This document shows positions 5,262-18,193 of a stretch of 64,000 nucleotides of DNA, in pieces (the stretch's first letter is position 1; each line of letters begins with the position of its first letter). A program made the position numbers and the translations under genes. Location of the stretch: the NCBI RefSeq assembly GCF_020723905.1, contig NZ_DYHZ01000006.1, positions 1 through 64,000 of the forward strand. The letters are read 5' to 3'. Source of the DNA: Anaerolinea thermophila. GTDB taxonomy: Bacteria; Chloroflexota; Anaerolineae; Anaerolineales; Anaerolineaceae. Below the pieces are notes generated by a model. It had not been told where the DNA came from and did not search any database. It saw only the letters and a program-made list of their open reading frames with translations.

Positions 5262-6605
5262 TTAAGCCATGACCGTAGCACGACCATACAATCTTTCGCG
5301 AATGGCGAAAATCTTTCTGCGCAGACGATCATCGCGCTCGATCATGTCAGCAACTTTTTCGCAAGCGTACATAACAGTGGTATGATCCCGTCCACCCAGG
5401 GCTTCACCAATTTGCGGTAAAGAAGCGTTCGCTTCCTCTCTCATCAGGTACATAGCCACCTGTCGGGGCAGAGCCACATCACGGGAACGGCTTCTGCCAA
5501 GCAGTTCGTCCATCGAAATGCCAAATTCGCTGGCAACCACTTCCAGTACTTGAGAAGATTCCAGATGAGTGCGATTGGGCAGCATATCCGCGAGGGCAGT
5601 ATGCACCAACTGGGGAGATAAAGGCATTCCCGATAAATCCGAAAATGCCAGTACCCGAGTCAAGGCACCTTCTAATTCTCGAATGTTGGACTGGACTAAG
5701 CGAGCAATACTTTCAAGGATCGGGTACGGCACTTCTTTGTTATTCCGTTCCGCCTTTGAACGCAAAATGGCAATCCTTGTTTCCAAATCGGGAGGTTGAA
5801 TATCAACGGTTAATCCCCATTCGAAACGGGAACGAAGACGTTCTTCGAGGGTGACCAGGGCTTTAGGAGAACGATCGGAAGAAATCACAATCTGTTTATC
5901 CTGCCCATGAAGGGTATTGAAGGTATGGAAAAATTCTTCCTGAGTGGACTCTTTTCCCGCAATAAACTGGATGTCATCAATGAGGAGCACATCCATCTTT
6001 CGGTAACGCTCACGGAAAGCCTGAGTGGTATGAGAACGAATGGCGTTGATCAAATCGTTGGTAAACTCTTCCGACGACACATAGAGGACTTGCAAACCTC
6101 TTGCCTGGGCAGCATTTCCAATGGCATGTAACAGGTGAGTTTTCCCTAATCCAACACCACCATATAGAAAGAGCGGGTTATAGGCTTTGGCAGGACTTTC
6201 AGCAACCGCCATACAGGCAGCGTGTGCCATCCGGTTGCTGGTCCCAACAATAAAATTATCAAAGGTGTAGCGAGGGTTGATGGTATTGGGACCATTTCTT
6301 GGAGCCACCTGCTGGAAACTCTCAACAAAATTTTCTTCTTCGGGTAGATCCATCTCATCACGATGCCAAACCACGAACCTGACCACTGGAGTTGTGCCAG
6401 TCAACCCTTCCAGAATTTTTTGTACAGAACCAGTCAAGCGACTTTCCAGCCAGTCTCGAGCATATGCATTAGGCACGCCGATGATAAATTCTCCCCCTTC
6501 AGATGAAATCAACTGTGCATCTTTTACCCACGTATCAAAGGATGCTTTGTTCATTTCCATTTGCAATTGTCCGAGGGTTGCTTGCCATGCTTGCTGTGGG
6601 TTCAT
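5262..6605 (-). CDS. dnaA: Chromosomal replication initiator protein DnaA
   Basis: DnaA binds the origin and opens it in an ATP-dependent way. The 447-residue protein has domain I (1-80, starting MNPQQAWQATLGQLQ), a short acidic linker, an AAA+ domain with Walker A GGVGLGKTH, Walker B LLIDDIQFI and sensor ERLRSRFEWG, and the C-terminal DNA-binding domain with the signature GGRDHTTVMYA. The ATG at 6605 is chosen because GGAGG precedes it by eight bases; an in-frame upstream extension has no such site. dnaN is not next to it; RNase J follows instead. The 441 bases upstream hold no convincing DnaA boxes. Confidence 0.97.
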   Translation of the reverse strand: MNPQQAWQATLGQLQMEMNKASFDTWVKDAQLISSEGGEFIIGVPNAYARDWLESRLTGSVQKILEGLTGTTPVVRFVVWHRDEMDLPEEENFVESFQQVAPRNGPNTINPRYTFDNFIVGTSNRMAHAACMAVAESPAKAYNPLFLYGGVGLGKTHLLHAIGNAAQARGLQVLYVSSEEFTNDLINAIRSHTTQAFRERYRKMDVLLIDDIQFIAGKESTQEEFFHTFNTLHGQDKQIVISSDRSPKALVTLEERLRSRFEWGLTVDIQPPDLETRIAILRSKAERNNKEVPYPILESIARLVQSNIRELEGALTRVLAFSDLSGMPLSPQLVHTALADMLPNRTHLESSQVLEVVASEFGISMDELLGRSRSRDVALPRQVAMYLMREEANASLPQIGEALGGRDHTTVMYACEKVADMIERDDRLRRKIFAIRERLYGRATVMA

Positions 6606-7046
6606 GCGACACACCTCCAAAGTTTTTTCGGTCAAAGACAATAGGGGCAGATAAACCCGCTGCATTTCTCAAACGCAGCGGGAAAGATCCCTGCATATTC
6701 GCCTGTATCCGTTTGGGACGAAACCACCAACCCCTTATCGTCAGTAAAAATTTTATCAAATGGACGGGATTGGAGCAAGTCGAAAAGCCTACGGGCGCTT
6801 AAAAAAATACCGAATTTTAAGTTTATGGTTCTTAAAAAAACCTCTTCAAATTTTTTAAGACTTTTTGCTGCCGCTCTTGCCACCTCCCCAATATATACAA
6901 TTTTGGAAACGGTAACACCACCACATATGGGGTTTACTATCTCATTTTCACTTATGCAGACTAAATATCGGCGTAGAAATTTTTACGTCCTCTTACAAAA
7001 GCCCATTCAATCAGTCAGAATCAAAAGCCTCTTTTTGCAATGAAAA
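6606..7046. other. Gene-free region upstream of dnaA
   Basis: This 441-base stretch holds the dnaA ribosome binding site and is AT-rich, with two CTTAAAAAAA tracts (6799 and 6831). No plausible gene is seen on either strand. Loose DnaA-box resemblances are TTATCGTCA (6735) and TTATGCAGA (6953), each two mismatches from TTATCCACA, so an origin cannot be claimed. A weak -10-like TATATT on the minus strand at 6890-6895 could belong to a dnaA promoter. Confidence 0.5.
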
Positions 7047-9615: not shown

Positions 9616-9621
9616 TATAAT
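9616..9621 (+). promoter_or_regulatory. -10 element of the radical SAM/AAA operon
   Basis: TATAAT with a predicted start near 9628, twelve bases before the ATG at 9640, which also has GGTGA as ribosome binding site. The -35 region is not recognisable, which could mean that an activator is needed. Confidence 0.45.
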
Positions 9622-9639
9622 AATTACTGGTGACGCTAG

Positions 9640-10263
9640 ATGATCAATGTTGCAGAGGTTTTTGTTGGGACAAGAGCACTTGGACCCGGATTAAGAACTG
9701 TTATCTGGGTTCAGGGTTGTCCTTTTCATTGTAAGGGTTGTTACTCCCCTGAATGGATTCCCAATATACCTGCTAAATTATACACACCTCAGGACCTTGC
9801 TACGCTCGTGCTTTCAAGACCTGATATTGAAGGAATAACATTATCTGGTGGTGAACCATTTATCCAGAGTGAAGAACTGGTGGAATTCTTAACCCTTATA
9901 AAAAAGCAATCAAACAAAAATGTTATTTGTTTTTCTGGTTTTCGGTTTTCATTTCTTTTACAGCATCCTTCTCCTTCAGTACAAGGCATGCTGCGGCTTA
10001 TTGATGTATTGATTGATGGACCTTATGTACAGGAGAAAGAAACCAGTAAAGGATTGAGAGGGTCAACCAACCAACATATATACCACTTTACTTCAACTCT
10101 TCTCTTTCATGATTTTATCAATCAAGAAAGAGTTAATGAAATCCACATCTCAGGGAGTGAGTTACTCGCTATCGGTATTCCGAGTCCAGAAATCAAAGCT
10201 CTTTTCGGGTTCAACAACAAATGTGGTTCACAGCCAAAGGAGCATCTCTATGAGCGGGCATAA
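9640..10263 (+). CDS. NrdG-like radical SAM activase without a visible partner enzyme
   Basis: A 207-residue protein of the anaerobic ribonucleotide-reductase-activase type. It has C27-x3-C31-x2-C34 (GCPFHCKGC) to bind a [4Fe-4S] cluster and SAM, followed by SGGEP at 69-73. NrdG-type proteins make a glycyl radical on a partner enzyme, but no nrdD or other glycyl-radical enzyme is in the window. Instead it overlaps a coiled-coil protein gene by 14 bases and is followed by a double AAA+ ATPase. The cluster is AT-rich compared with genes further right, which fits acquisition by transfer. The target may be in this operon or elsewhere. Confidence 0.82.
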   Translation: MINVAEVFVGTRALGPGLRTVIWVQGCPFHCKGCYSPEWIPNIPAKLYTPQDLATLVLSRPDIEGITLSGGEPFIQSEELVEFLTLIKKQSNKNVICFSGFRFSFLLQHPSPSVQGMLRLIDVLIDGPYVQEKETSKGLRGSTNQHIYHFTSTLLFHDFINQERVNEIHISGSELLAIGIPSPEIKALFGFNNKCGSQPKEHLYERA

Positions 10264-11620
10264 AAGAACAACCGTGACCATCAGTCAAGAAGAATACAGG
10301 AAACTTTATGAAGCAGAAATGCTCCTGAAAGGTTTAGATCTACAGTCATCTGGCAAATCCGGACGTCCATCGGTGGAAGCAATCACTTTTCTAAACACCC
10401 AGATGGATTACTCTATTCAACGACAGGAACAATTTCTCCGTCTAGGAGAAGCCTTGAGAAATGAAGTTTCAAGTTTAGAAAACAGTACGGCTGAAAACAT
10501 ACGAGACCTTGAATATCATCTTCTTCAGGAAATCCAGCAAAATAACGAAAACGTCTTTGAAACCATGGGAAAATTTGAAGAAGATTTGAAGCGCCTGGAA
10601 AATCACTTTGTTAAGGCAAACGAAGACACCCTGAAAATTCTCTGGCAATTTCAACATCAATCCAACGAATTTCTTTACAGGGAAGAAGAGAAAGGCGAAT
10701 ACGTACGTGGATGGCTGGATGATTGCATCCAGGTATTCAACTTTATTCTTGAAAATTATCCAGAAAGTGTTCCGTATATCGAAAATCTTCAAAATGTTCA
10801 AACACAGTTGGATTTCGCCATTCAAAATTTCCATCTGGGCTTTTATGATTCAGCACTCAATCTTTCCCAAACCATTTACTTTAATTTATCATCCCTAAGA
10901 TTAAAACTGGAAAACGAAGGGGTTGAAAAAAGACGTATTCTTGCCGAGATTATCGATGAATTATCCAAATTGCAAAATAACTTAAGGAGAAATCGAAAAA
11001 TTAAACCCGTTGATTTACAGGGGAATCTGATCGACTCCTATATTTCTGTTGATGAATGGTCTGGCAATACACTATCTCAACTTGAAAGTTATGTTTCGCA
11101 ATTAATCCAGGAATTTAACAAATATGGAATCCAACAAAGCCTTGAAATTTTGAGAGATTTCAAAGAAAACCAACTTCAATCCCTAAAAAATCAGTTGATC
11201 GAAGTTATTCATCAGGCACGTCTTAATGCTTTAAATGCCCACTTAAATTATTTAATCGCTCATGATGTACTGCTTGCGCTGGTTGAGCAGGGATATAAAC
11301 CAATCGAAGGGGAATACGAATCTGAAGAGATTAAAGACACATATATTGCAAAAGCCGTCGATCCATTGGGGAATCTCGTGGAAATTCAGGTTCAAACAAC
11401 ATCTCCAGAAAAAATTGAACATGATTTACACATCATATCAACCCATAAACAGAATCATTCATTACATGAATTAAGGCAACGAGCAAAAGAAATTCAGAAA
11501 AGTCTGAACAAAATCGGCTGGGTAGTTCAGGACCCTATAGAACTACCTAATTCCATTACCAGAACCGTTAAAAGACCATCACAGGTTCGTCTTCCATTAA
11601 TTAGAGGTGATCACGCATGA
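10250..11620 (+). CDS. RHH-like N terminus plus long coiled-coil protein, unknown function
   Basis: A 456-residue protein. The ATG at 10250 is chosen because AAGGAG lies seven bases upstream; an in-frame extension would read through the previous gene. Residues 6-28 (TTVTISQEEYRKLYEAEML) look like a ribbon-helix-helix strand and helix. Residues about 60-330 are rich in Gln, Glu, Asn and Leu and predict long coiled coils, then a more globular part (about 370-440) contains KAVDPLGNLVEIQVQ. No enzyme motif or membrane segment is seen. The stop overlaps the AAA gene by four bases, so all three proteins are probably made together; this one may be scaffold or substrate of the ATPase. Confidence 0.75.
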   Translation: MSGHKRTTVTISQEEYRKLYEAEMLLKGLDLQSSGKSGRPSVEAITFLNTQMDYSIQRQEQFLRLGEALRNEVSSLENSTAENIRDLEYHLLQEIQQNNENVFETMGKFEEDLKRLENHFVKANEDTLKILWQFQHQSNEFLYREEEKGEYVRGWLDDCIQVFNFILENYPESVPYIENLQNVQTQLDFAIQNFHLGFYDSALNLSQTIYFNLSSLRLKLENEGVEKRRILAEIIDELSKLQNNLRRNRKIKPVDLQGNLIDSYISVDEWSGNTLSQLESYVSQLIQEFNKYGIQQSLEILRDFKENQLQSLKNQLIEVIHQARLNALNAHLNYLIAHDVLLALVEQGYKPIEGEYESEEIKDTYIAKAVDPLGNLVEIQVQTTSPEKIEHDLHIISTHKQNHSLHELRQRAKEIQKSLNKIGWVVQDPIELPNSITRTVKRPSQVRLPLIRGDHA

Positions 11621-14193
11621 AAAGGTTACTGTCTAAAATTAAGGACAAACTTGAACAACGGTTCTTAATTTTGTATGGGTTTGGATTATCCGATTCTTTT
11701 CTCACAGAGAATTTCCAGGAATTACAACTGGATCTGGCTTTATTGCACACTCTTAAAGGGTTGGGATATAAAAGAATTTTATACCTGAGCCCGCAAAATC
11801 CTCTTCACTTCCTGGATGAAGAATCCAAAATTTTATCCCGTCATATAATCTGGGAAAAACGTCAGGATGTACTGGAGAACAGACATTTATCAGAAATTCA
11901 ACAGGGTCCTTTTGGAAATATCCATTTTTTCCAGCAAATTGTTAACGAACCTTCAGGCAAAACTGACCCAATTGGTGATATCCATGCGCTCCGATTGGTA
12001 GATTATCTGGTACAGGAAATCAATCCGTACAAAACCGCAATTATCATTGATCAGGCTGATATTTTTCTCTCGTATTTTGAAGATCAAAGATCTATGGCAA
12101 GTATTATTGGGAAATGGTTGCGTTTGCCCTCCTATAATTCGAGCCAGATTTTTTTTGTAATCTCTTCTCCAGATTTTTCCGATTTAATCAGCCGTATCCA
12201 GCAACTTCCTCTTCCTGAACTGACCCTCCTGGCCCATTTTGAAACCCAGGATCCATCTCACCCCTTTATTCTGGTTGAGGGTCCGGAACAAGATGAATGT
12301 CATCTTCTTTTACAATATTTCAAAGATCAGAATTCTGTTGATATTCCAGACGAAGAGTTTCGTACACTCAGTGATTGGATGACCGTTGAAAACCAGCCAT
12401 TAAAGATATGGATGGCTCGTTTATCTCAAATATCATCCTTTTCAATTGAAACAGGCAAACAAAAAGGATGGTTTCAAGCCTTTCACCACGATTCCAGAAC
12501 AATTGAAGAAAAACTCAACGAATTAATCGGTTTAACCGAAATCAAAACAAGGATTACTGAATTATCAGGTTGGATCCAGGAGAAAAAGAAAACCGGCTCT
12601 CCAATAAACCATAACTTTCACATGGTTTTCATTGGTCATCCCGGCACTGGAAAGACCACCATGGCGCGAATCATTGGGGAAATTTTTAAGGATTTAGGCA
12701 TTTTACAAAAAGGTCACCTGGTTGAAGCAAAAGCAAGTGATCTCATCGCAGAATATGTGGGCGGTACCGCAATCAAAACAAACTCTGTGATTGACAAAGC
12801 ACAGGGTGGCGTGTTGTTCATTGATGAGGCCTATTCCCTTAGTGCAAAAGATCGAGGTGGATTTGGTCAGGAAGCCATAGAGACCTTATTAATTCGAATG
12901 GAAAATGAAAGAAATCGCTTTATTGTGATCCTTGCGGGATATCCTCAAGAAATGAATGATTTTATAGAATCAAATCCAGGGTTGAGCCGAAGGTTTCCAG
13001 TTGAAAATCGGTTTTATTTCCCGGATTTTTCTGAAGAAGAACTTTTCATTATTTTACGGAATATGCTAAATGAAAAACAACTAAACCTGACCAGTGAGAT
13101 GGAAAACCTTCTCAAAGAAGTTATTCATCAAATGGTCATGCAAAAAAACGAACGTTTTGGAAACGCTGGAGAAATGCGCAATTTGTCTGAATCCATCGAA
13201 AGAAAGTGCCTTGCAAGATATCACTTTCAGAATTTATCGAGTGAATACTGGATTGCAAAGGAAGATATCAGCGATGAGTACATACGTTATTTAAATGTGT
13301 CCAACGAAAATAAACAGTCCGAATTTTTTGAGGCGCTGGAAAAATTAAAAGGTCTTTGGCAAGTTAAAAATTATGTAAGGCAGTTATTTTATAGAGTCCA
13401 ATTTGAAAAATTGCAAGCCTTATCAAAAGGATCAATAAAACCAGAAGTAAGAATACCTCATCTGGTATTTGTCGGAAATCCCGGAACCGGAAAAACCACC
13501 GTTGCCAGATTGATCTCCAGGTTTTTTCATCAAATTGGATTTTTACATAAAGGACACCTGATCGAAGTCACAGCCGCTGATCTAATTGCTGGATATGTTG
13601 GACAAACGCCTGAGAAGACCAGTAAGGTTATAAAGTCCTCCCTTGGTGGTGTTTTGTTTATTGATGAAGCATACAGTCTTATTCGGGGATCCAATCGAGA
13701 TCATTATGGATTGGAAGTGATCGATCTGCTGGTAAAAAACATAGACAGGTATGAAGGTCAACTTTGTATCATCCTGGCTGGTTATCCAGAAGAAATGAGT
13801 GATTTTCTCAGAAGCAATCCGGGATTGAAATCTCGTTTTGATGATCCGATTTTCTTTGAAGACCTATCAAATGATCATTTTATTGAAATCCTCAGAGAAC
13901 TGGCAGAACATGACGGGTTAATCCTACCAGAAGAAGTCATCCGGTACGCCATTCAAGAGATTGAAGCCCGAAAAAAGATACAAGGGAAATCCTTTGGTAA
14001 TGCGCGCGAAGTAATAAAAGTTTATGAAAAGATGAAAGACCATCTAGCACTACGGGTAATTCCAGAGATTCAGGGTAAAAATAATAACCTGGCTCAAATC
14101 CCCGGTTGGAATATATTCCAGGTTGAGGATATTTTAGAATCATCAGAATTTATCCACTTCTCTGAAAATCAAAAATTGTATAGAAATTCGTGA
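11617..14193 (+). CDS. Double AAA+ ATPase of the CbbX/SpoVK type with an extra N-terminal region
   Basis: An 858-residue protein. Two similar AAA+ modules of the CbxX/CfqX (SpoVK-like) family are present: Walker A GHPGTGKTT near residue 339 and Walker B GVLFIDEAYSL near 397 in the first, GNPGTGKTT near 620 and GVLFIDEAYSL near 676 in the second. Both carry the family helix AGYPxEMxDFxxxNPGLxxRF. The first 300 residues resemble a decayed P-loop ATPase domain, with a Walker-B-like TAIIIDQADIF near 145 but no Walker A. CbbX-type proteins remodel other proteins. The gene overlaps the coiled-coil gene by four bases and ends 19 bases from the convergent TPR gene. Confidence 0.88.
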   Translation: MKRLLSKIKDKLEQRFLILYGFGLSDSFLTENFQELQLDLALLHTLKGLGYKRILYLSPQNPLHFLDEESKILSRHIIWEKRQDVLENRHLSEIQQGPFGNIHFFQQIVNEPSGKTDPIGDIHALRLVDYLVQEINPYKTAIIIDQADIFLSYFEDQRSMASIIGKWLRLPSYNSSQIFFVISSPDFSDLISRIQQLPLPELTLLAHFETQDPSHPFILVEGPEQDECHLLLQYFKDQNSVDIPDEEFRTLSDWMTVENQPLKIWMARLSQISSFSIETGKQKGWFQAFHHDSRTIEEKLNELIGLTEIKTRITELSGWIQEKKKTGSPINHNFHMVFIGHPGTGKTTMARIIGEIFKDLGILQKGHLVEAKASDLIAEYVGGTAIKTNSVIDKAQGGVLFIDEAYSLSAKDRGGFGQEAIETLLIRMENERNRFIVILAGYPQEMNDFIESNPGLSRRFPVENRFYFPDFSEEELFIILRNMLNEKQLNLTSEMENLLKEVIHQMVMQKNERFGNAGEMRNLSESIERKCLARYHFQNLSSEYWIAKEDISDEYIRYLNVSNENKQSEFFEALEKLKGLWQVKNYVRQLFYRVQFEKLQALSKGSIKPEVRIPHLVFVGNPGTGKTTVARLISRFFHQIGFLHKGHLIEVTAADLIAGYVGQTPEKTSKVIKSSLGGVLFIDEAYSLIRGSNRDHYGLEVIDLLVKNIDRYEGQLCIILAGYPEEMSDFLRSNPGLKSRFDDPIFFEDLSNDHFIEILRELAEHDGLILPEEVIRYAIQEIEARKKIQGKSFGNAREVIKVYEKMKDHLALRVIPEIQGKNNNLAQIPGWNIFQVEDILESSEFIHFSENQKLYRNS

Positions 14194-14211
14194 GCCATTA
14201 AGAATTGAGAA

Positions 14212-15192
14212 TTAATAAAGAGTGGTCAACACCTTTCTCATATCTGATATTCTGAACTGATACCAATCTCTCTTCTGGATTTCTCTTTTAAAATCAGCAG
14301 ATTCTCTCAACTCTTCAAAGGATTGAATTGCATCCGACATGAAAATTAAACTATTATTTTTTTCTTCCGGTATTCTCGAATAAATCAATCCAATCATCCA
14401 CCTCCCAACAGCCCACTGATGATTAAAAGGAGTAAAAGAAGCGCAGGCTTTCTTCAGAAAATCAATGGCTCTTCTGAAATCTCCCATTTGATAAATGGCA
14501 ACGCCTATTTTTACCCAGATTTCGCCGGTCTCCCCGGGATCCAGATTAGCCCGCCCGAGAGAAGAAAGCCAACGAGAAATTTCATAGGCTTCGGGATACT
14601 TTCTTTGTTGAATTTTCTCTTTTAACCTCCCAATGATATGATTGGCTTCGTCACTGATTTTTGAAGGCTCAAATAAATTCAGCCAGTATTCGGCTTCTTC
14701 AACTGTGGCTGCCATATCCAGATTGATTTTTTCCAATCTCTCTGAATACCAGAGGTTACCTTTTACATCCCCTATTTGGATTCGGTGAAACTGACAATCC
14801 TGAAAAGTTTTCCGTGCCAGAAACCAGTGAGAATAGGCATGAGAATTTTCCTGCAACTCCCACTCAATCATACCCAGCAACCAGTATGTCACCCCCTGTT
14901 GATGGGTGCCCGGTCTGAACAATTCAGTTGCTCTTAAGATTTCAGCATAAGCACTCCGCAGGTCTTGTTTTTCAAAAAAGTACCTGGATATGCCCAGATA
15001 AATTTCAGCCGCTTGCAACGGTCTTGGAGTGTTTTGAGCCGTTTTTCTTAATTCTCTCAAAAAATCTTCTCGTTCATTGTAGGATAATTTGGGTTCATTC
15101 AACTGGAAAAAATTTAATAAATCTGCATTGGATAAATTTGAATGGCTAAACTGATTAAGCCATCCATAAACTTCGTCAAAACCCAAGATCAT
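14212..15192 (-). CDS. TPR-like helical repeat protein
   Basis: A 326-residue soluble protein built of helical pairs with TPR-like spacing. Examples are AEIYLGISRYFFEKQDLRSA near 63 and EIWVKIGVAIYQMGDFRRA near 224, both followed by the A-x-x-x-A/F pattern of TPR helix B. No signal peptide or membrane segment is seen. It is the last gene of the minus-strand operon after two SPFH-like genes, 11 bases from the previous one, and its 3' end lies 19 bases from the AAA gene. TPR proteins usually serve as binding platforms, so it may link the membrane SPFH pair to the AAA/coiled-coil proteins (inference). Confidence 0.78.
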   Translation of the reverse strand: MILGFDEVYGWLNQFSHSNLSNADLLNFFQLNEPKLSYNEREDFLRELRKTAQNTPRPLQAAEIYLGISRYFFEKQDLRSAYAEILRATELFRPGTHQQGVTYWLLGMIEWELQENSHAYSHWFLARKTFQDCQFHRIQIGDVKGNLWYSERLEKINLDMAATVEEAEYWLNLFEPSKISDEANHIIGRLKEKIQQRKYPEAYEISRWLSSLGRANLDPGETGEIWVKIGVAIYQMGDFRRAIDFLKKACASFTPFNHQWAVGRWMIGLIYSRIPEEKNNSLIFMSDAIQSFEELRESADFKREIQKRDWYQFRISDMRKVLTTLY

Positions 15193-15203
15193 GGATTATC
15201 CTC

Positions 15204-16490
15204 CTAAAGTTCATCAAAAAAGAGTAGATTTTGACCATCTTGCTGTTTTTCTGACCGATTCCGTGAGTTTATCCAGTTTTCTATCATTTCAGCAGTACGC
15301 AAAATCAGCAATTTGCGAATACTTTCTGAAGGCTCTTCTCCCCAGTTAACGTCTTTCAAGGCTTCTGTGAGAGCGATAATCATCTCAGCATGCGCTTCAG
15401 CTCTTCCCATCTCCAAGAACACCTGGCGTTTGGCTTCACCATATGCCCTTTGCACCTGAGCATTCCCCAGCCAGTCAGCCGCCCAATAATCAGTTCTCTG
15501 CTCATCTACGACAGGGTCAATTTCAAAATGCCCGATATCTACCCAAATTAACTCTGCACCGTTATTCCTCAACGCCGTCCTGGTTGGTCCATATAAGAGA
15601 GAATATCGTATCTCTCTCCGAGGGTCAATTCCCGACTCCCTTGGAGCGGTCAGATAATCAATATCATGTTCACTGATAAAGTCTGTGATCCCCCCTACCA
15701 CCGCACGGCCTACCACGGTCCTCCAGTTATCCGGACCAGCATCAGTTACCGGTAGATTGTAAGCCGAGTTCCACAAAGCCTTTTCGTCAAACGGGTAAGG
15801 TTCATCAACCGTTCGCCGTTTTGGACGTCCAAATTGCAACTCAGGAAACAACCGGTATCGGAACTGAATGTCTTTTATTGTCACACGAATTCCATCACGG
15901 GTCACTGCAGGAATATCAGAACGGGAATCCTGTTGTTCATCCAGATTGACAATCTGACCAATTGTCTCGAACGGGCGCAGGTAATAACTCTCTCGAATGG
16001 ATATTCTGGAAGGTCGCCTCAATTCTTTAAACATAACGGCATTTCCCGGCTGGATAACGACATGCCCAGGTCCGCCGATAGCGTCGATTAAATTCACTTC
16101 GTTCTTTTCCAGTTTCTTTTCCCCGCCATCAATGATAATACGGGGAACAAACAAAGCAAATAAAGAGGAAATGACGTAACGGATCCCCTGACGCAATCTT
16201 GGAAGCGCGTAGATATCCCTCACATAAGAGCCCGCCGCTAATGTCACAAAAATGATCACAGAAACGGGGGCAAGGAAATACCGCGCAGTATGAGGGTTAA
16301 AGGCAATGCGGAAAAATTCGATCGGAGGAAACCGCCAGAAATTCTTAATTTCCTCAGATAAATCAGGCTCGAAAAGCCACCCCGCCAAAAACAGGAATAT
16401 TGAAATGAGAGCAAACAGAAAAAGAATCCTGCTCAATCCCGCTATGCGGTGCTGTACTTGAAAATTACCCGTGGTACGAGGCTGATTCAT
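15204..16490 (-). CDS. SPFH/band 7-like membrane protein, second of a pair
   Basis: A 428-residue protein with two or three hydrophobic segments in the first 110 residues (for example ILFLFALISIFLFLAGWLF near 22-40), then a region like the SPFH (stomatin/prohibitin/flotillin) domain: GGPGHVVIQPGNAVMF and later VTRDGIRVTIKDIQFRYR, which match the start and middle strand of such domains. The C-terminal part is helical and charged, with an Ala/Glu-rich stretch near 360-390 as in flotillins. SPFH proteins form large membrane-bound rings. It overlaps the upstream paralogue by four bases (ATGA) and precedes the TPR gene. Confidence 0.72.
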   Translation of the reverse strand: MNQPRTTGNFQVQHRIAGLSRILFLFALISIFLFLAGWLFEPDLSEEIKNFWRFPPIEFFRIAFNPHTARYFLAPVSVIIFVTLAAGSYVRDIYALPRLRQGIRYVISSLFALFVPRIIIDGGEKKLEKNEVNLIDAIGGPGHVVIQPGNAVMFKELRRPSRISIRESYYLRPFETIGQIVNLDEQQDSRSDIPAVTRDGIRVTIKDIQFRYRLFPELQFGRPKRRTVDEPYPFDEKALWNSAYNLPVTDAGPDNWRTVVGRAVVGGITDFISEHDIDYLTAPRESGIDPRREIRYSLLYGPTRTALRNNGAELIWVDIGHFEIDPVVDEQRTDYWAADWLGNAQVQRAYGEAKRQVFLEMGRAEAHAEMIIALTEALKDVNWGEEPSESIRKLLILRTAEMIENWINSRNRSEKQQDGQNLLFFDEL

Positions 16491-18115
16491 TTTCTTCCCT
16501 CTAATCCCCCTTCTCCAATTCTGCCCTGTAAAAGACGAAGGATTTCCACGGTGTGGGGTGGAAGCAACTGACGAGTTTTAGGATCAGAAGCAGAACTCTC
16601 CAGAGCGCGAAGCAGACGCACAGCAACGACTTCGTCAGTTAAATCTTTAGAGTCAAAAATTTCTTTCAGGTGCGTCGCCAGATCAACCTGTGCCTTTGCA
16701 CGCGCCCTTCCCATGACCCGCATCGCCTCTAACTCCAGGCTTGCCGCGCGAATGGCCGTGTCTCTCTGCCAGGGAGCCCGCCACGACTCCAGACGGTGAT
16801 GATAAATGGCTTCATTGACCGGATTAATATCTCCAAAGTTACTGCTAATTACCTTGATTCCCCGATCTCGAAGGAGTTTGGGAGTCATCAGAGGAAACAC
16901 TTCACTGACGATGATTTCTGAAACATGATATACCCTTCTTCTCTGAAAGGGTTCGCCATTTTTCAGGAAGACCATCCGGTATGAAAGCAAGCCGTTATTT
17001 CTGACTGTCTGGCGAAGCCGTGCCCGGTATATTGACACACCAGGTGATCTGCCATGTAACTGATATAGCTCATCAAATCGCACCTGAGAAAGGATTTCCC
17101 GAAACACGCTTGCAGCAAATCGCGCCGGCAATTCTGTCCATGTCAATAATCGGTCTTCAGAACGAGCCTGAGCAAATACTGCCGCAAAAACCCGATCACG
17201 GTCAAATTCAGGCTGGTTCGAAACAGGCGGCAAAGGGGTATAGGGCTTAAAATCTCGATCGCTTAAACCATGGCTAACATGATGAATTTCTCTTCGATCG
17301 TTGCGTTCCAGTTCATCTTCAATGGCGACCAACCGGAGGTAATCACGATTCACCTGTTCAAAGCGGACCACCCGTAAATGATCGGCATCCTGTTCTTTGC
17401 CTTCATAAGTGACTTCAACTACATCCGGCGGTTGCCCAATTGTAAAAATGCAATTCACATTGGCATACACTTCTATTCCGTCCCGCGTATATGCCGTAAC
17501 CCCGCGAATCACTCGAAACTGCCGTCGAAGGTCCACAGTGCCGCGAATGCGCTCACGCTTCCGCATAAACACAATCCCGGGACCAAACACGCGTGGGGAC
17601 TGGGGACGATCTGCCAGACCCAACAACATCTGAACCTGATGGAAAAAATCCTCAAAAGCCCTTCCAATCCCCGGCGGGGGAACCGTTTCTTCCAGCACCA
17701 CCGCAGAATTAAAGTCCACAACAATCACCCCCGGACCGTTGCGAACATCCTCGCGAGTGCTGATGACTTTTCCGTCCTTCACAAACACCGCGGGACCATG
17801 TAAACGCAGGATATACAACATCAGGCGCCAGATGGTGCGCCAGATCTCTTTAGCATTTTGTACCGGCAGGATTGCCTGGGCAGAGATCATCCAGACATAA
17901 ATAAACCCAATGAGGACAAAACCCGCCAGATTGTATAACACAATGAAAAATGCAATGCGACGTTCAGGATCATTCAGTTTACCAAAGTCCCCAAGTACCT
18001 CTAAAAAAAATTTCAACTCTTTTTCAAAACTGATGATAAAAAGGAAAATTAAAAAAACCACCAATCCAATGATGAGCAAAACCCTGTTCTTTCTGTTCGG
18101 TTCGCCAAGATACAT
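16487..18115 (-). CDS. SPFH/band 7-like membrane protein, first of a pair
   Basis: A 542-residue protein with two clear transmembrane helices (about 11-29 and 53-75), a linker, then an SPFH-like domain starting GPGVIVVDFNSAVVLE and continuing with YTRDGIEVYANVNCIF. The C-terminal half has an Ala/Arg/Glu-rich helix (AIRAASLELEAMRVMGRARA) typical of flotillin-like proteins. It shares this layout with the next gene, so the two look like paralogues that may build a mixed ring. A good promoter lies just upstream at 18164-18193 and AAAGG is the likely ribosome binding site. G+C content is closer to the window average than in the convergent AAA operon. Confidence 0.75.
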   Translation of the reverse strand: MYLGEPNRKNRVLLIIGLVVFLIFLFIISFEKELKFFLEVLGDFGKLNDPERRIAFFIVLYNLAGFVLIGFIYVWMISAQAILPVQNAKEIWRTIWRLMLYILRLHGPAVFVKDGKVISTREDVRNGPGVIVVDFNSAVVLEETVPPPGIGRAFEDFFHQVQMLLGLADRPQSPRVFGPGIVFMRKRERIRGTVDLRRQFRVIRGVTAYTRDGIEVYANVNCIFTIGQPPDVVEVTYEGKEQDADHLRVVRFEQVNRDYLRLVAIEDELERNDRREIHHVSHGLSDRDFKPYTPLPPVSNQPEFDRDRVFAAVFAQARSEDRLLTWTELPARFAASVFREILSQVRFDELYQLHGRSPGVSIYRARLRQTVRNNGLLSYRMVFLKNGEPFQRRRVYHVSEIIVSEVFPLMTPKLLRDRGIKVISSNFGDINPVNEAIYHHRLESWRAPWQRDTAIRAASLELEAMRVMGRARAKAQVDLATHLKEIFDSKDLTDEVVAVRLLRALESSASDPKTRQLLPPHTVEILRLLQGRIGEGGLEGRK

Positions 18116-18163
18116 GGGGATACCTTTTTCAATTCAGAGATAAAAATCCCACTTGGTTAAATC

Positions 18164-18193
18164 AGTATAGCCCTGATAAATTCCCTTTGTCAA
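18164..18193 (-). promoter_or_regulatory. Housekeeping promoter of the SPFH/TPR operon
   Basis: On the minus strand a perfect TTGACA (18193-18188) and TATACT (18169-18164) are separated by 18 bp. The predicted start near 18157 gives a leader of about 42 bases before the ATG at 18115. Confidence 0.75.

What the first reader, a model, noticed from the sequence alone, without database searches (positions are those of the whole stretch)
9616..18193. Candidate undescribed system: radical SAM, coiled-coil, double AAA+ ATPase, SPFH pair and TPR protein in two convergent operons
Seen: six genes fill 8.5 kb. The plus operon encodes an NrdG-like radical SAM protein, an RHH/coiled-coil protein and a double CbbX-type AAA+ ATPase, with 14- and 4-base overlaps. 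The minus operon encodes two SPFH-like membrane proteins (4-base overlap) and a TPR protein, from a near-consensus promoter. The 3' ends are 19 bases apart. Known: CbbX-type AAA+ proteins remodel other proteins, SPFH proteins form membrane rings, and NrdG-type enzymes make glycyl radicals. Inference: a membrane-associated protein-remodelling or defence module. The plus half is AT-rich, which suggests transfer.
Basis: partly seen in the sequence, partly recalled or inferred. Interest (0 to 1): 0.78.

Follow-up and report, generated by a model that had tools for sequence, protein, structure and literature searches.

The report
Radical-SAM/AAA core on SPFH platform
Six neighbouring bacterial genes form a repeatedly inherited set that joins a radical enzyme and a ring-shaped protein-remodelling motor to a membrane scaffold; its core recurs in several phyla beside predicted immune-type genes, and what it does is still unknown.

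Summary
All six genes are real. The plus-strand trio (radical SAM; coiled-coil protein starting MSGxK; AAA protein with a degenerate AAA-fold N-domain and two intact CbbX-type rings) is a core spanning phyla: all three lie together in 58 of 104 stretches caught by a radical-SAM motif (Actinomycetota, Chloroflexota, Bacteroidota, Cyanobacteria, Desulfobacterota). The minus-strand trio is an SPFH pair (fold supported by prediction) plus a TPR protein. In the window's order the SPFH pair lies beside the coiled-coil gene in 12 of 19 readable genomes, nine with the same convergent order, window included, and the two co-occur genome-wide (14 of 21 against 35 of 379). So the halves belong together, yet each has other partners: the core with DO-GTPase/GAP1-N2/Hsp70-type conflict genes elsewhere, the SPFH pair with KAP NTPases. 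The NrdG reading fails: NrdD was found in 0 of 10 genomes. Best model: a membrane-anchored, radical-SAM-licensed protein-remodelling switch, probably of the NTP-dependent conflict kind. Defence is inferred, not shown. Ten paper searches found no description of the trio.

The parts
9640..10263 (+). Short radical SAM protein (207 aa), NrdG/PFL-activase-like, motif WVQGC-x3-C-x2-C-x-S-P-E-W
   Evidence: no NrdD match in the genome
10250..11620 (+). Coiled-coil protein (456 aa) starting MSGHK; partner of the radical SAM protein; start at 10250 rather than 10109 by homology
   Evidence: MSGxK in 42 of 46 and, by reading the output, 16 of 19 further relatives
11617..14193 (+). AAA protein (858 aa): degenerate AAA-fold N-domain (residues 1-296) plus two CbbX/SpoVK-type rings with Walker A, Walker B and a YVG motif at the pore-loop place
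14194..14211 (.). 18-base convergent junction between the two operons; the convergent order recurs in relatives
14212..15192 (-). TPR protein (326 aa)
   Evidence: TPR_12 7.7e-4, below cut-off; found in the same place in relatives
15204..16490 (-). SPFH2: membrane SPFH-fold protein (428 aa)
   Evidence: hydropathy
16487..18115 (-). SPFH1: membrane SPFH-type protein (542 aa)
   Evidence: Band_7 E 0.003; hhalign to SPFH2 probability 99.7; hydropathy
18164..18193 (-). Candidate promoter TTGACA-18-TATACT of the SPFH operon
   Evidence: consensus match only

Best explanation
The six genes make one membrane-anchored, NTP-driven protein-remodelling switch. Shown by computation: the core of radical SAM enzyme, MSGxK coiled-coil protein and AAA protein is conserved across phyla; in the window's order it is coupled to an SPFH pair and usually a TPR protein. 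Inferred: SPFH1 and SPFH2 form a heteromeric ring or cage on the membrane, as HflK/HflC, prohibitins and erlins do; the TPR protein is the adaptor; the AAA protein (dead first AAA fold as a docking part, two active rings with aromatic pore loops) is held there and threads or refolds the coiled-coil protein or a complex held together by it; the radical SAM enzyme modifies the coiled-coil protein, most likely at or near its conserved N-terminal MSGxK, and so licenses or resets it. In other lineages DO-GTPase/GAP1/Hsp70 genes stand where the SPFH platform stands here, and some AAA proteins carry a trypsin-like protease, so the output there could be proteolysis. By this company the likely role is a biological-conflict or damage switch rather than metabolism. 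The window's variant has no recognisable toxin or nuclease.
For: Core unity: radical SAM, coiled-coil and N-domain AAA genes together in 58 of 104 motif-caught stretches, radical SAM plus coiled-coil in 10 more; coiled-coil gene found in 34 of 35 radical SAM genomes searched whole, and in 11 of the 12 among them whose stretch showed none. Link of the halves: SPFH pair beside the coiled-coil gene in 12 of 19 readable order genomes, window included; 14 of 21 genomes with the coiled-coil gene have SPFH1 against 35 of 379 without, Fisher p 1.7e-9, not corrected for phylogeny; in one genome the coiled-coil gene sits with the SPFH pair while radical SAM and AAA lie on another contig (L160, L072). 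Folds: N-domain AAA fold, mean pLDDT 86, Z 11.4; SPFH2 model, mean pLDDT 71, matches SPFH structures, best E 4.4e-10. Conflict company: GAP1-N2 and DO-GTPase-type genes beside the core in Chitinophaga and Chloroploca, like operons in Saprospiraceae and Flavihumibacter; DO-GTPases, Hsp70 and a TPR protein on a Calothrix plasmid; trypsin-TPR, vWA and DUF4407 proteins in Actinomycetota; Trypsin_2 on two AAA proteins.
Against: No effector, nuclease or toxin is recognised in the window's six proteins, and the PADLOC matches are only to shared AAA or radical SAM folds. GAP1-N2 and DO-GTPase, the defining parts of the nearest described conflict systems, are not found in this genome, though the DO-GTPase search also missed the gene beside the core in G527 and so is weak. 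Seven of 19 readable order genomes have the core without an adjacent SPFH pair, and 35 of 379 order genomes have SPFH1 without the coiled-coil gene. Distance correlations are lower between the halves (0.33 to 0.71) than for coiled-coil/AAA (0.85) or SPFH1/SPFH2 (0.97); the radical SAM protein correlates no better with its own half (0.50, 0.56) than with the SPFH proteins (0.59, 0.60). No substrate or chemistry of the radical SAM enzyme is shown; the MSGxK link is inferred, and the third residue is not strictly Gly (MSC, MSA occur).
Confidence: 0.45

Rival explanations
1. Housekeeping membrane-protein quality control: the SPFH cage and AAA motor act like HflK/C-FtsH on damaged membrane proteins, with the radical SAM enzyme maturing one component; no link to conflict.
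For: SPFH fold nearest HflK/C, stomatin, erlin and prohibitin; chromosomal setting, a DnaA-like ORF at 5262-6665 (label by eye); no toxin.
Against: Patchy presence: coiled-coil gene in 21 of 400 order genomes and 5 of 400 in the phylum; core on a plasmid, and radical SAM plus a short MSGHK protein on a virus-like contig; company with DO-GTPase, GAP1 and trypsin-TPR proteins elsewhere.
Confidence: 0.25
2. Two independent modules that merely sit side by side at a favoured insertion site, each with its own function.
For: Lower between-half distance correlations and different GC; each occurs without the other.
Against: Adjacency in 12 of 19 readable genomes, one of them co-directional (L042) and one with only the coiled-coil gene beside the SPFH pair (L160); three genomes have both on different contigs (G717, G992, G911); Fisher p 1.7e-9.
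Confidence: 0.15
3. The radical SAM enzyme makes a small antiviral molecule (viperin-like) and the AAA/coiled-coil proteins gate it.
For: Weak pVip match, E 7.5e-6.
Against: NCBIfam viperin 20.3 bits against cut-off 180; closer to NrdG and PFL activase, which act on proteins; the near-constant partner is a protein with a conserved N-terminus.
Confidence: 0.05
4. The coiled-coil protein is a RiPP-like or scaffold precursor, the radical SAM enzyme its maturase and the AAA protein its export or assembly motor.
For: A virus-like contig carries the radical SAM gene and a 165-aa MSGHK protein; no AAA match in its 22.7-kb record (the record may be a fragment). The AAA rings also match EccA of type VII secretion.
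Against: The protein is about 435-514 aa and matched nearly end to end in most relatives; no cleavage signal or transporter was looked for.
Confidence: 0.1

Closest known systems
GTPase-centric (DO-GTPase/GAP1-N2) conflict systems, Kaur et al. 2020 (PMC7159879; sections 21, 27, 29 and found passages read)
   Same: The radical SAM/coiled-coil/AAA core lies in operons with DO-GTPase-type and GAP1-N2 genes in Bacteroidota and Chloroflexales, and with GTPase-like, Hsp70-like, vWA and trypsin-TPR genes in Actinomycetota; membrane setting.
   Different: The parts read do not name the core in these systems; no GAP1-N2 or DO-GTPase match in the window's genome, SPFH pair and TPR in their place. They call these systems nearly absent in cyanobacteria, where DO-GTPases stand beside the core here.
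HflK/HflC-FtsH and prohibitin/erlin cages
   Same: Two homologous SPFH membrane proteins with an AAA motor.
   Different: AAA motor is CbbX-type, with no hydrophobic segment and no protease domain here; adds radical SAM, coiled-coil and TPR proteins.
CbbX / SpoVK / EccA AAA proteins
   Same: The first ring matches CbbX structures 3syk, 3zuh and EccA1; both rings match the SpoVK, CbbX and EccA models.
   Different: Two rings plus a degenerate AAA-fold N-domain.
NrdG / PFL activase
   Same: Short radical SAM protein with CxxxCxxC.
   Different: Below the NrdG cut-off; no NrdD match in the genome.
FtsH ternary vWA-MoxR systems (same paper, section 21)
   Same: The paper describes an AAA protein with inactive first domain and, in a subset, a radical SAM gene with a presumed peptide target.
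   Different: There the AAA is FtsH-type; vWA and MoxR parts are not among the window's six proteins.

Membership tests
GTPase-centric conflict system | DO-GTPase gene in the locus | tested here: not met
   None of the six proteins matches a GTPase family
GTPase-centric conflict system | DO-GTPase gene anywhere in the genome | tested here: inconclusive
   No PF19993 match in the own genome; among nine Chloroflexota of this set only sub-cut-off hits in G179 and G707; but the same search missed the sub-threshold gene of G527 seen
GTPase-centric conflict system | GAP1 (N2 type) | tested here: not met
   No PF20013 match in the own genome nor in the eight other Chloroflexota of this set (seven with the core, and G179); 16 of 53 genomes searched have one
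GTPase-centric conflict system | FNIII-repeat or GASH component | not tested
   -
Class III RNR activase NrdG | CxxxCxxC radical SAM family | tested here: met
Class III RNR activase NrdG | Passes TIGR02491 cut-off | tested here: not met
   103.6 bits against 126.1
Class III RNR activase NrdG | NrdD partner in the genome | tested here: not met
   Found in 0 of 10 genomes, own included; control rings in 6 of 14
SPFH superfamily | SPFH fold | tested here: met
   SPFH2 model: 48 PDB matches at E<=0.001, 47 of them with titles naming SPFH proteins or their complexes; SPFH1 by profile to SPFH2. Band_7 itself is below cut-off
SPFH superfamily | N-terminal membrane anchor | tested here: met
   Hydropathy segments within residues 14-44, 68-91 and 102-120 (SPFH2) and 8-38, 52-85 (SPFH1)
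SPFH superfamily | Oligomeric ring or cage | not testable with these tools
   -
CbbX/SpoVK-type AAA | Walker A and B in the AAA domains | tested here: met
   Two of each in the window protein; two Walker A in 29 of 30 and two Walker B in 26 of 30 proteins, window included
CbbX/SpoVK-type AAA | Passes the CbbX equivalog cut-off | tested here: not met
   370.9 against 459.25; SpoVK 472.5 passes 422.95, with two matched stretches in the sum
Prokaryotic viperin | Passes viperin model cut-off | tested here: not met
   20.3 against 180
vWA-MoxR ternary system | vWA and MoxR genes in the locus | tested here: not met
   Pfam of the six proteins

The most novel reading that the evidence does not exclude
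A cross-phylum class of radical-SAM-licensed AAA machine: the radical SAM enzyme modifies the N-terminal MSGxK of a dedicated coiled-coil protein, which then becomes (or ceases to be) the substrate or adaptor of a triple-AAA motor; interchangeable platforms (SPFH cage with TPR, or DO-GTPase/GAP1/Hsp70) decide where and when it fires. A virus-like element carrying the radical SAM gene and a short MSGHK protein could be a decoy against it.
Probability: 0.33. Interest if true: 0.88.

Novelty: new variant of a known kind. Interest (0 to 1): 0.72.

Why it matters
It gives the NTP-dependent conflict-system network a recurring core that the parts of the 2020 description read here do not mention, and it ties radical SAM chemistry to a protein-remodelling motor and a membrane scaffold. 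A conserved five-residue N-terminus, a near-constant one-protein partner and named, isolated hosts (for example Anaerolinea thermolimosa, Ornatilinea apprima, Streptomyces species) make the central claim directly testable.

Tried and rejected
The AAA protein alone against viral contigs found nothing. The 298-genome class scan for the AAA protein at E 1e-40 gave 16 genomes besides the own one, all with partial matches to ring regions. PADLOC gave only shared-fold matches for the radical SAM and AAA proteins and none for the others; PHROGs gave nothing for the coiled-coil and SPFH proteins, NCBIfam nothing for the SPFH proteins and only weak sub-cut-off hits for the coiled-coil and TPR proteins. 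Profile searches of PDB sequences gave nothing for SPFH1 or the AAA N-domain, one chance hit for SPFH2, and mainly generic helical or coiled-coil proteins for the coiled-coil protein. Plasmid radical SAM genes beside other AAA proteins (Moellerella, Polaromonas, Leisingera, Rhizobium, Paenibacillus, Arthrobacter) look like other systems; their loci gave no match to this AAA protein. Ten paper searches brought up only PMC7159879 as relevant to the trio; of PMC10853773 I saw passages, of all others only listings; supplements could not be read. NrdG and viperin were considered and rejected.

Limits. One search covered 80 of the 104 motif stretches; one search covers all 104 and replaces it; group names there were assigned by me from record titles. 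Genomes were mostly chosen by the radical SAM motif. One search's low SPFH1 rate (2 of 298) came from a single-sequence query and understates the family (49 of 400 with a profile). The two 400-genome order draws are taken to be the same draw because the handles recur. Three order genomes (G968, G972, G887) were read through loci L158, L159, L160 fetched under other handles with the same coordinates. G868 counts as lacking SPFH1 in the Fisher test although one search found it there. G1069 and G911 were left out of the adjacency count because the contig ends at the locus. A 247-aa ORF in the TPR place of L042 was not matched by the TPR profile. Coiled-coil starts were picked nearest the profile start, which favours that place. 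My first pore-loop pattern was wrong and was redone more loosely.
Full report
Observation. The six ORFs are as described: radical SAM 9640-10263, coiled-coil 10250-11620 and AAA 11617-14193 on the plus strand; TPR 14212-15192, SPFH2 15204-16490 and SPFH1 16487-18115 on the minus strand. The genome is 3.29 Mb in 13 contigs; one same-genus genome of the order sample has the coordinates of Anaerolinea thermolimosa. Pfam gives Fer4_12/Radical_SAM, two AAA domains and weak TPR; Band_7 is below cut-off for both SPFH proteins, and the coiled-coil protein matches no family over cut-off.

What each part is. The radical SAM protein resembles NrdG and PFL activase but misses the NrdG cut-off, and NrdD was found in 0 of 10 genomes of this set including this one, with the control ringing in 6 of 14. 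The AAA protein has two complete CbbX-type rings with YVG at the pore-loop place in both (the role of the motif is recalled). Its N-terminal 296 residues, modelled from 29 sequences at mean pLDDT 86, take an AAA fold: the listed Foldseek hits are mostly AAA+ ATPases and VIA-align gives Z 11.4, rmsd 3.9 over 192 residues to spastin; the only two Walker A matches of the protein lie in the two rings. SPFH2, modelled from 7 sequences at mean pLDDT 71, matches HflK/C, stomatin, erlin, prohibitin and flotillin structures, best E 4.4e-10; 47 of the 48 matches at E 0.001 or better have titles naming such proteins. SPFH1 and SPFH2 are homologous (probability 99.7). Both have N-terminal hydrophobic segments; the other four proteins have none.

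The core across phyla. tblastn against plasmids found the same trio on a Calothrix plasmid. From that, Chloroflexota relatives and a virus-like contig I made a radical SAM motif; it hits 104 stretches in genome contigs. Of these 104, 58 hold all three core genes, 10 radical SAM plus coiled-coil, 6 radical SAM plus AAA, 29 radical SAM alone and 1 none; stretches are 8 kb or less, so some misses are truncations. By group (named from titles), all three together: 42 of 58 Actinomycetota, 11 of 15 Chloroflexota, 3 of 4 Bacteroidota, 1 of 24 Cyanobacteria, 1 of 3 Desulfobacterota-type. In 35 radical SAM genomes searched whole (32 from the motif, 3 of the window's order), the coiled-coil gene is found in 34. 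Twelve of them showed no coiled-coil gene in the radical SAM stretch; 11 of the 12 have it outside that stretch, at least once on the same contig (G705). The genomes were selected by radical SAM, so this tests the coiled-coil partner, not the radical SAM gene.

The N-terminus. The coiled-coil protein begins MSGxK in 42 of 46 relatives with known duplicates removed, the window included, and by my reading in 16 of 19 further ones; exceptions are MSC twice, MSA three times, MSGHE once and one start with another sequence. A virus-like contig has the radical SAM gene and a 165-aa protein starting MSGHK; no AAA match was found in its 22.7-kb record, which may be a fragment. This makes the N-terminus my best guess for the site on which the radical SAM enzyme acts; nothing here proves it.

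The SPFH module and the link. In 400 genomes of the order the coiled-coil gene is in 21. Of 19 with readable flanks, 12 have SPFH1-SPFH2 next to the coiled-coil gene or its AAA neighbour: nine have the window's convergent order with TPR (window, G946, G968, G886, G934, G988, G994, G1016, G972; in G988 the radical SAM gene would lie beyond the contig end), one is convergent without a TPR match and with SPFH2 in an ORF with WD40 repeats (G868), one is co-directional (G651), one has coiled-coil and SPFH pair while radical SAM and AAA lie on another contig (G887, read as L160 and L072). Seven lack it (G785, G948, G978, G992, G717, G971, G622). Outside that sample, L161 with L067 (two contigs of one genome, the coiled-coil gene split between them) and Ornatilinea apprima L126, as far as its stretch reaches, show the same arrangement. 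SPFH1 is found in 49 of the 400: 14 of 21 with the coiled-coil gene, 35 of 379 without, p 1.7e-9, uncorrected for phylogeny. Of 50 motif genomes from all groups, SPFH1 is found in 6, all Chloroflexota, and in 0 of the other 44 (one of the six, G684, only weakly, by a second type of SPFH pair).

Two modules. Over 8 to 12 loci, protein distances agree most for coiled-coil/AAA (r 0.85), SPFH1/SPFH2 (0.97) and SPFH/TPR (0.87, 0.88); between the halves r runs from 0.33 (coiled-coil/SPFH1, p 0.06) through 0.44 (AAA/SPFH1) to 0.71 (AAA/TPR). The radical SAM protein does not take sides: 0.50 and 0.56 with its own half, 0.59 and 0.60 with the SPFH proteins. The window's SPFH proteins are 51-55% identical to those of its two congeners (23-44% to the other loci), its AAA rings 41-43% (36-39%), its coiled-coil protein 23-26% (18-28%). 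GC of the trio is below all 217 sampled ORFs, and in the two congeners the trio is also poorer in GC than the SPFH genes, which is not so, or only slightly, in the other nine loci. I read this as some exchange of the coiled-coil/AAA part at a fixed junction; faster change of that part is the alternative.

Other partners. The core lies with ZnR, DO-GTPase-type and GAP1-like genes in one operon in Chitinophaga, Saprospiraceae and Flavihumibacter; GAP1-N2 is over cut-off in Chitinophaga and called at the same contigs in all three, while the DO-GTPase matches are sub-cut-off. It lies beside GAP1-N2, Hsp70-like and ZnR/WD40-like genes in Chloroploca, and beside Hsp70, a TPR protein with an NB-ARC-like part (label by eye) and DO-GTPases in Calothrix and, for the GTPases, Brasilonema. 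In five of six actinobacterial loci read at length there is a GTPase-like neighbour: three with a sub-cut-off DO-GTPase2 match (L179, L180, L182), two by eye (L181, L189); the GAP1-sized proteins scanned there have no Pfam GAP1 match. GAP1-N2 occurs in 16 of 53 genomes searched, none of them among the nine Chloroflexota of the SPFH/core set. One order genome without the SPFH pair, G785, has a GTPase with a sub-cut-off DO-GTPase2 match, an actin/Hsp70-like protein and a trypsin-tailed AAA protein. The SPFH pair without the core has a KAP NTPase directly upstream in G179 and in 4 of 13 further core-less loci listed.

Reading. The parts fit a membrane platform plus an NTP-driven remodelling core whose platform is interchangeable. 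The 2020 paper places many GTPase-centric systems near the membrane and proposes regulated assembly (sections 27 and 29); the sections and passages I read name no radical SAM/AAA trio there, the one radical SAM mention being in the FtsH ternary systems. Function as defence remains an inference by company.

Noticed in passing
L043 8037-13509; L256; L257; L266; L275: KAP-family NTPase directly upstream of the SPFH pair (with a TPR-place protein carrying Peptidase_S24 downstream in L043): another SPFH-platform system without the radical SAM core.
   Followed up: partly
L268, L269: SPFH1 in one ORF with LVIVD repeats (Pfam on L268, alike by eye in L269).
   Followed up: partly
L043 4562-7755; L161 8496-11413; L162 788-3780: A second, more divergent SPFH pair, near a pseudouridine-5-phosphate-glycosidase-like gene (label by eye).
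   Followed up: no
L032 298-1377: Virus-like contig with the radical SAM gene and a 165-aa MSGHK protein, on one 4.8-kb stretch with ParA and a YqaJ/Cas4-like nuclease: possible decoy or minimal pair.
   Followed up: partly
L024, L025, L028; L026, L030; L027: Other plasmid loci pairing a short radical SAM protein with unrelated AAA proteins (helicase-like AAA/PIN/hypothetical/AAA/radical SAM; AAA/DUF1257/DUF2997/radical SAM in L026, alike by eye in L030).
   Followed up: no
L042 13023-18874; L187 1456-3735: Sheath- and tube-like genes of a contractile injection system beside two of the core loci (assignment by eye).
   Followed up: no
L221 5249-6243: Three small WXG100-like proteins beside a coiled-coil/AAA locus with no radical SAM match nearby (assignment by eye); the AAA rings of the window also match the EccA model.
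   Followed up: no
L022, L185: DO-GTPase arrays in cyanobacteria, a phylum in which such systems were called nearly absent.
   Followed up: partly
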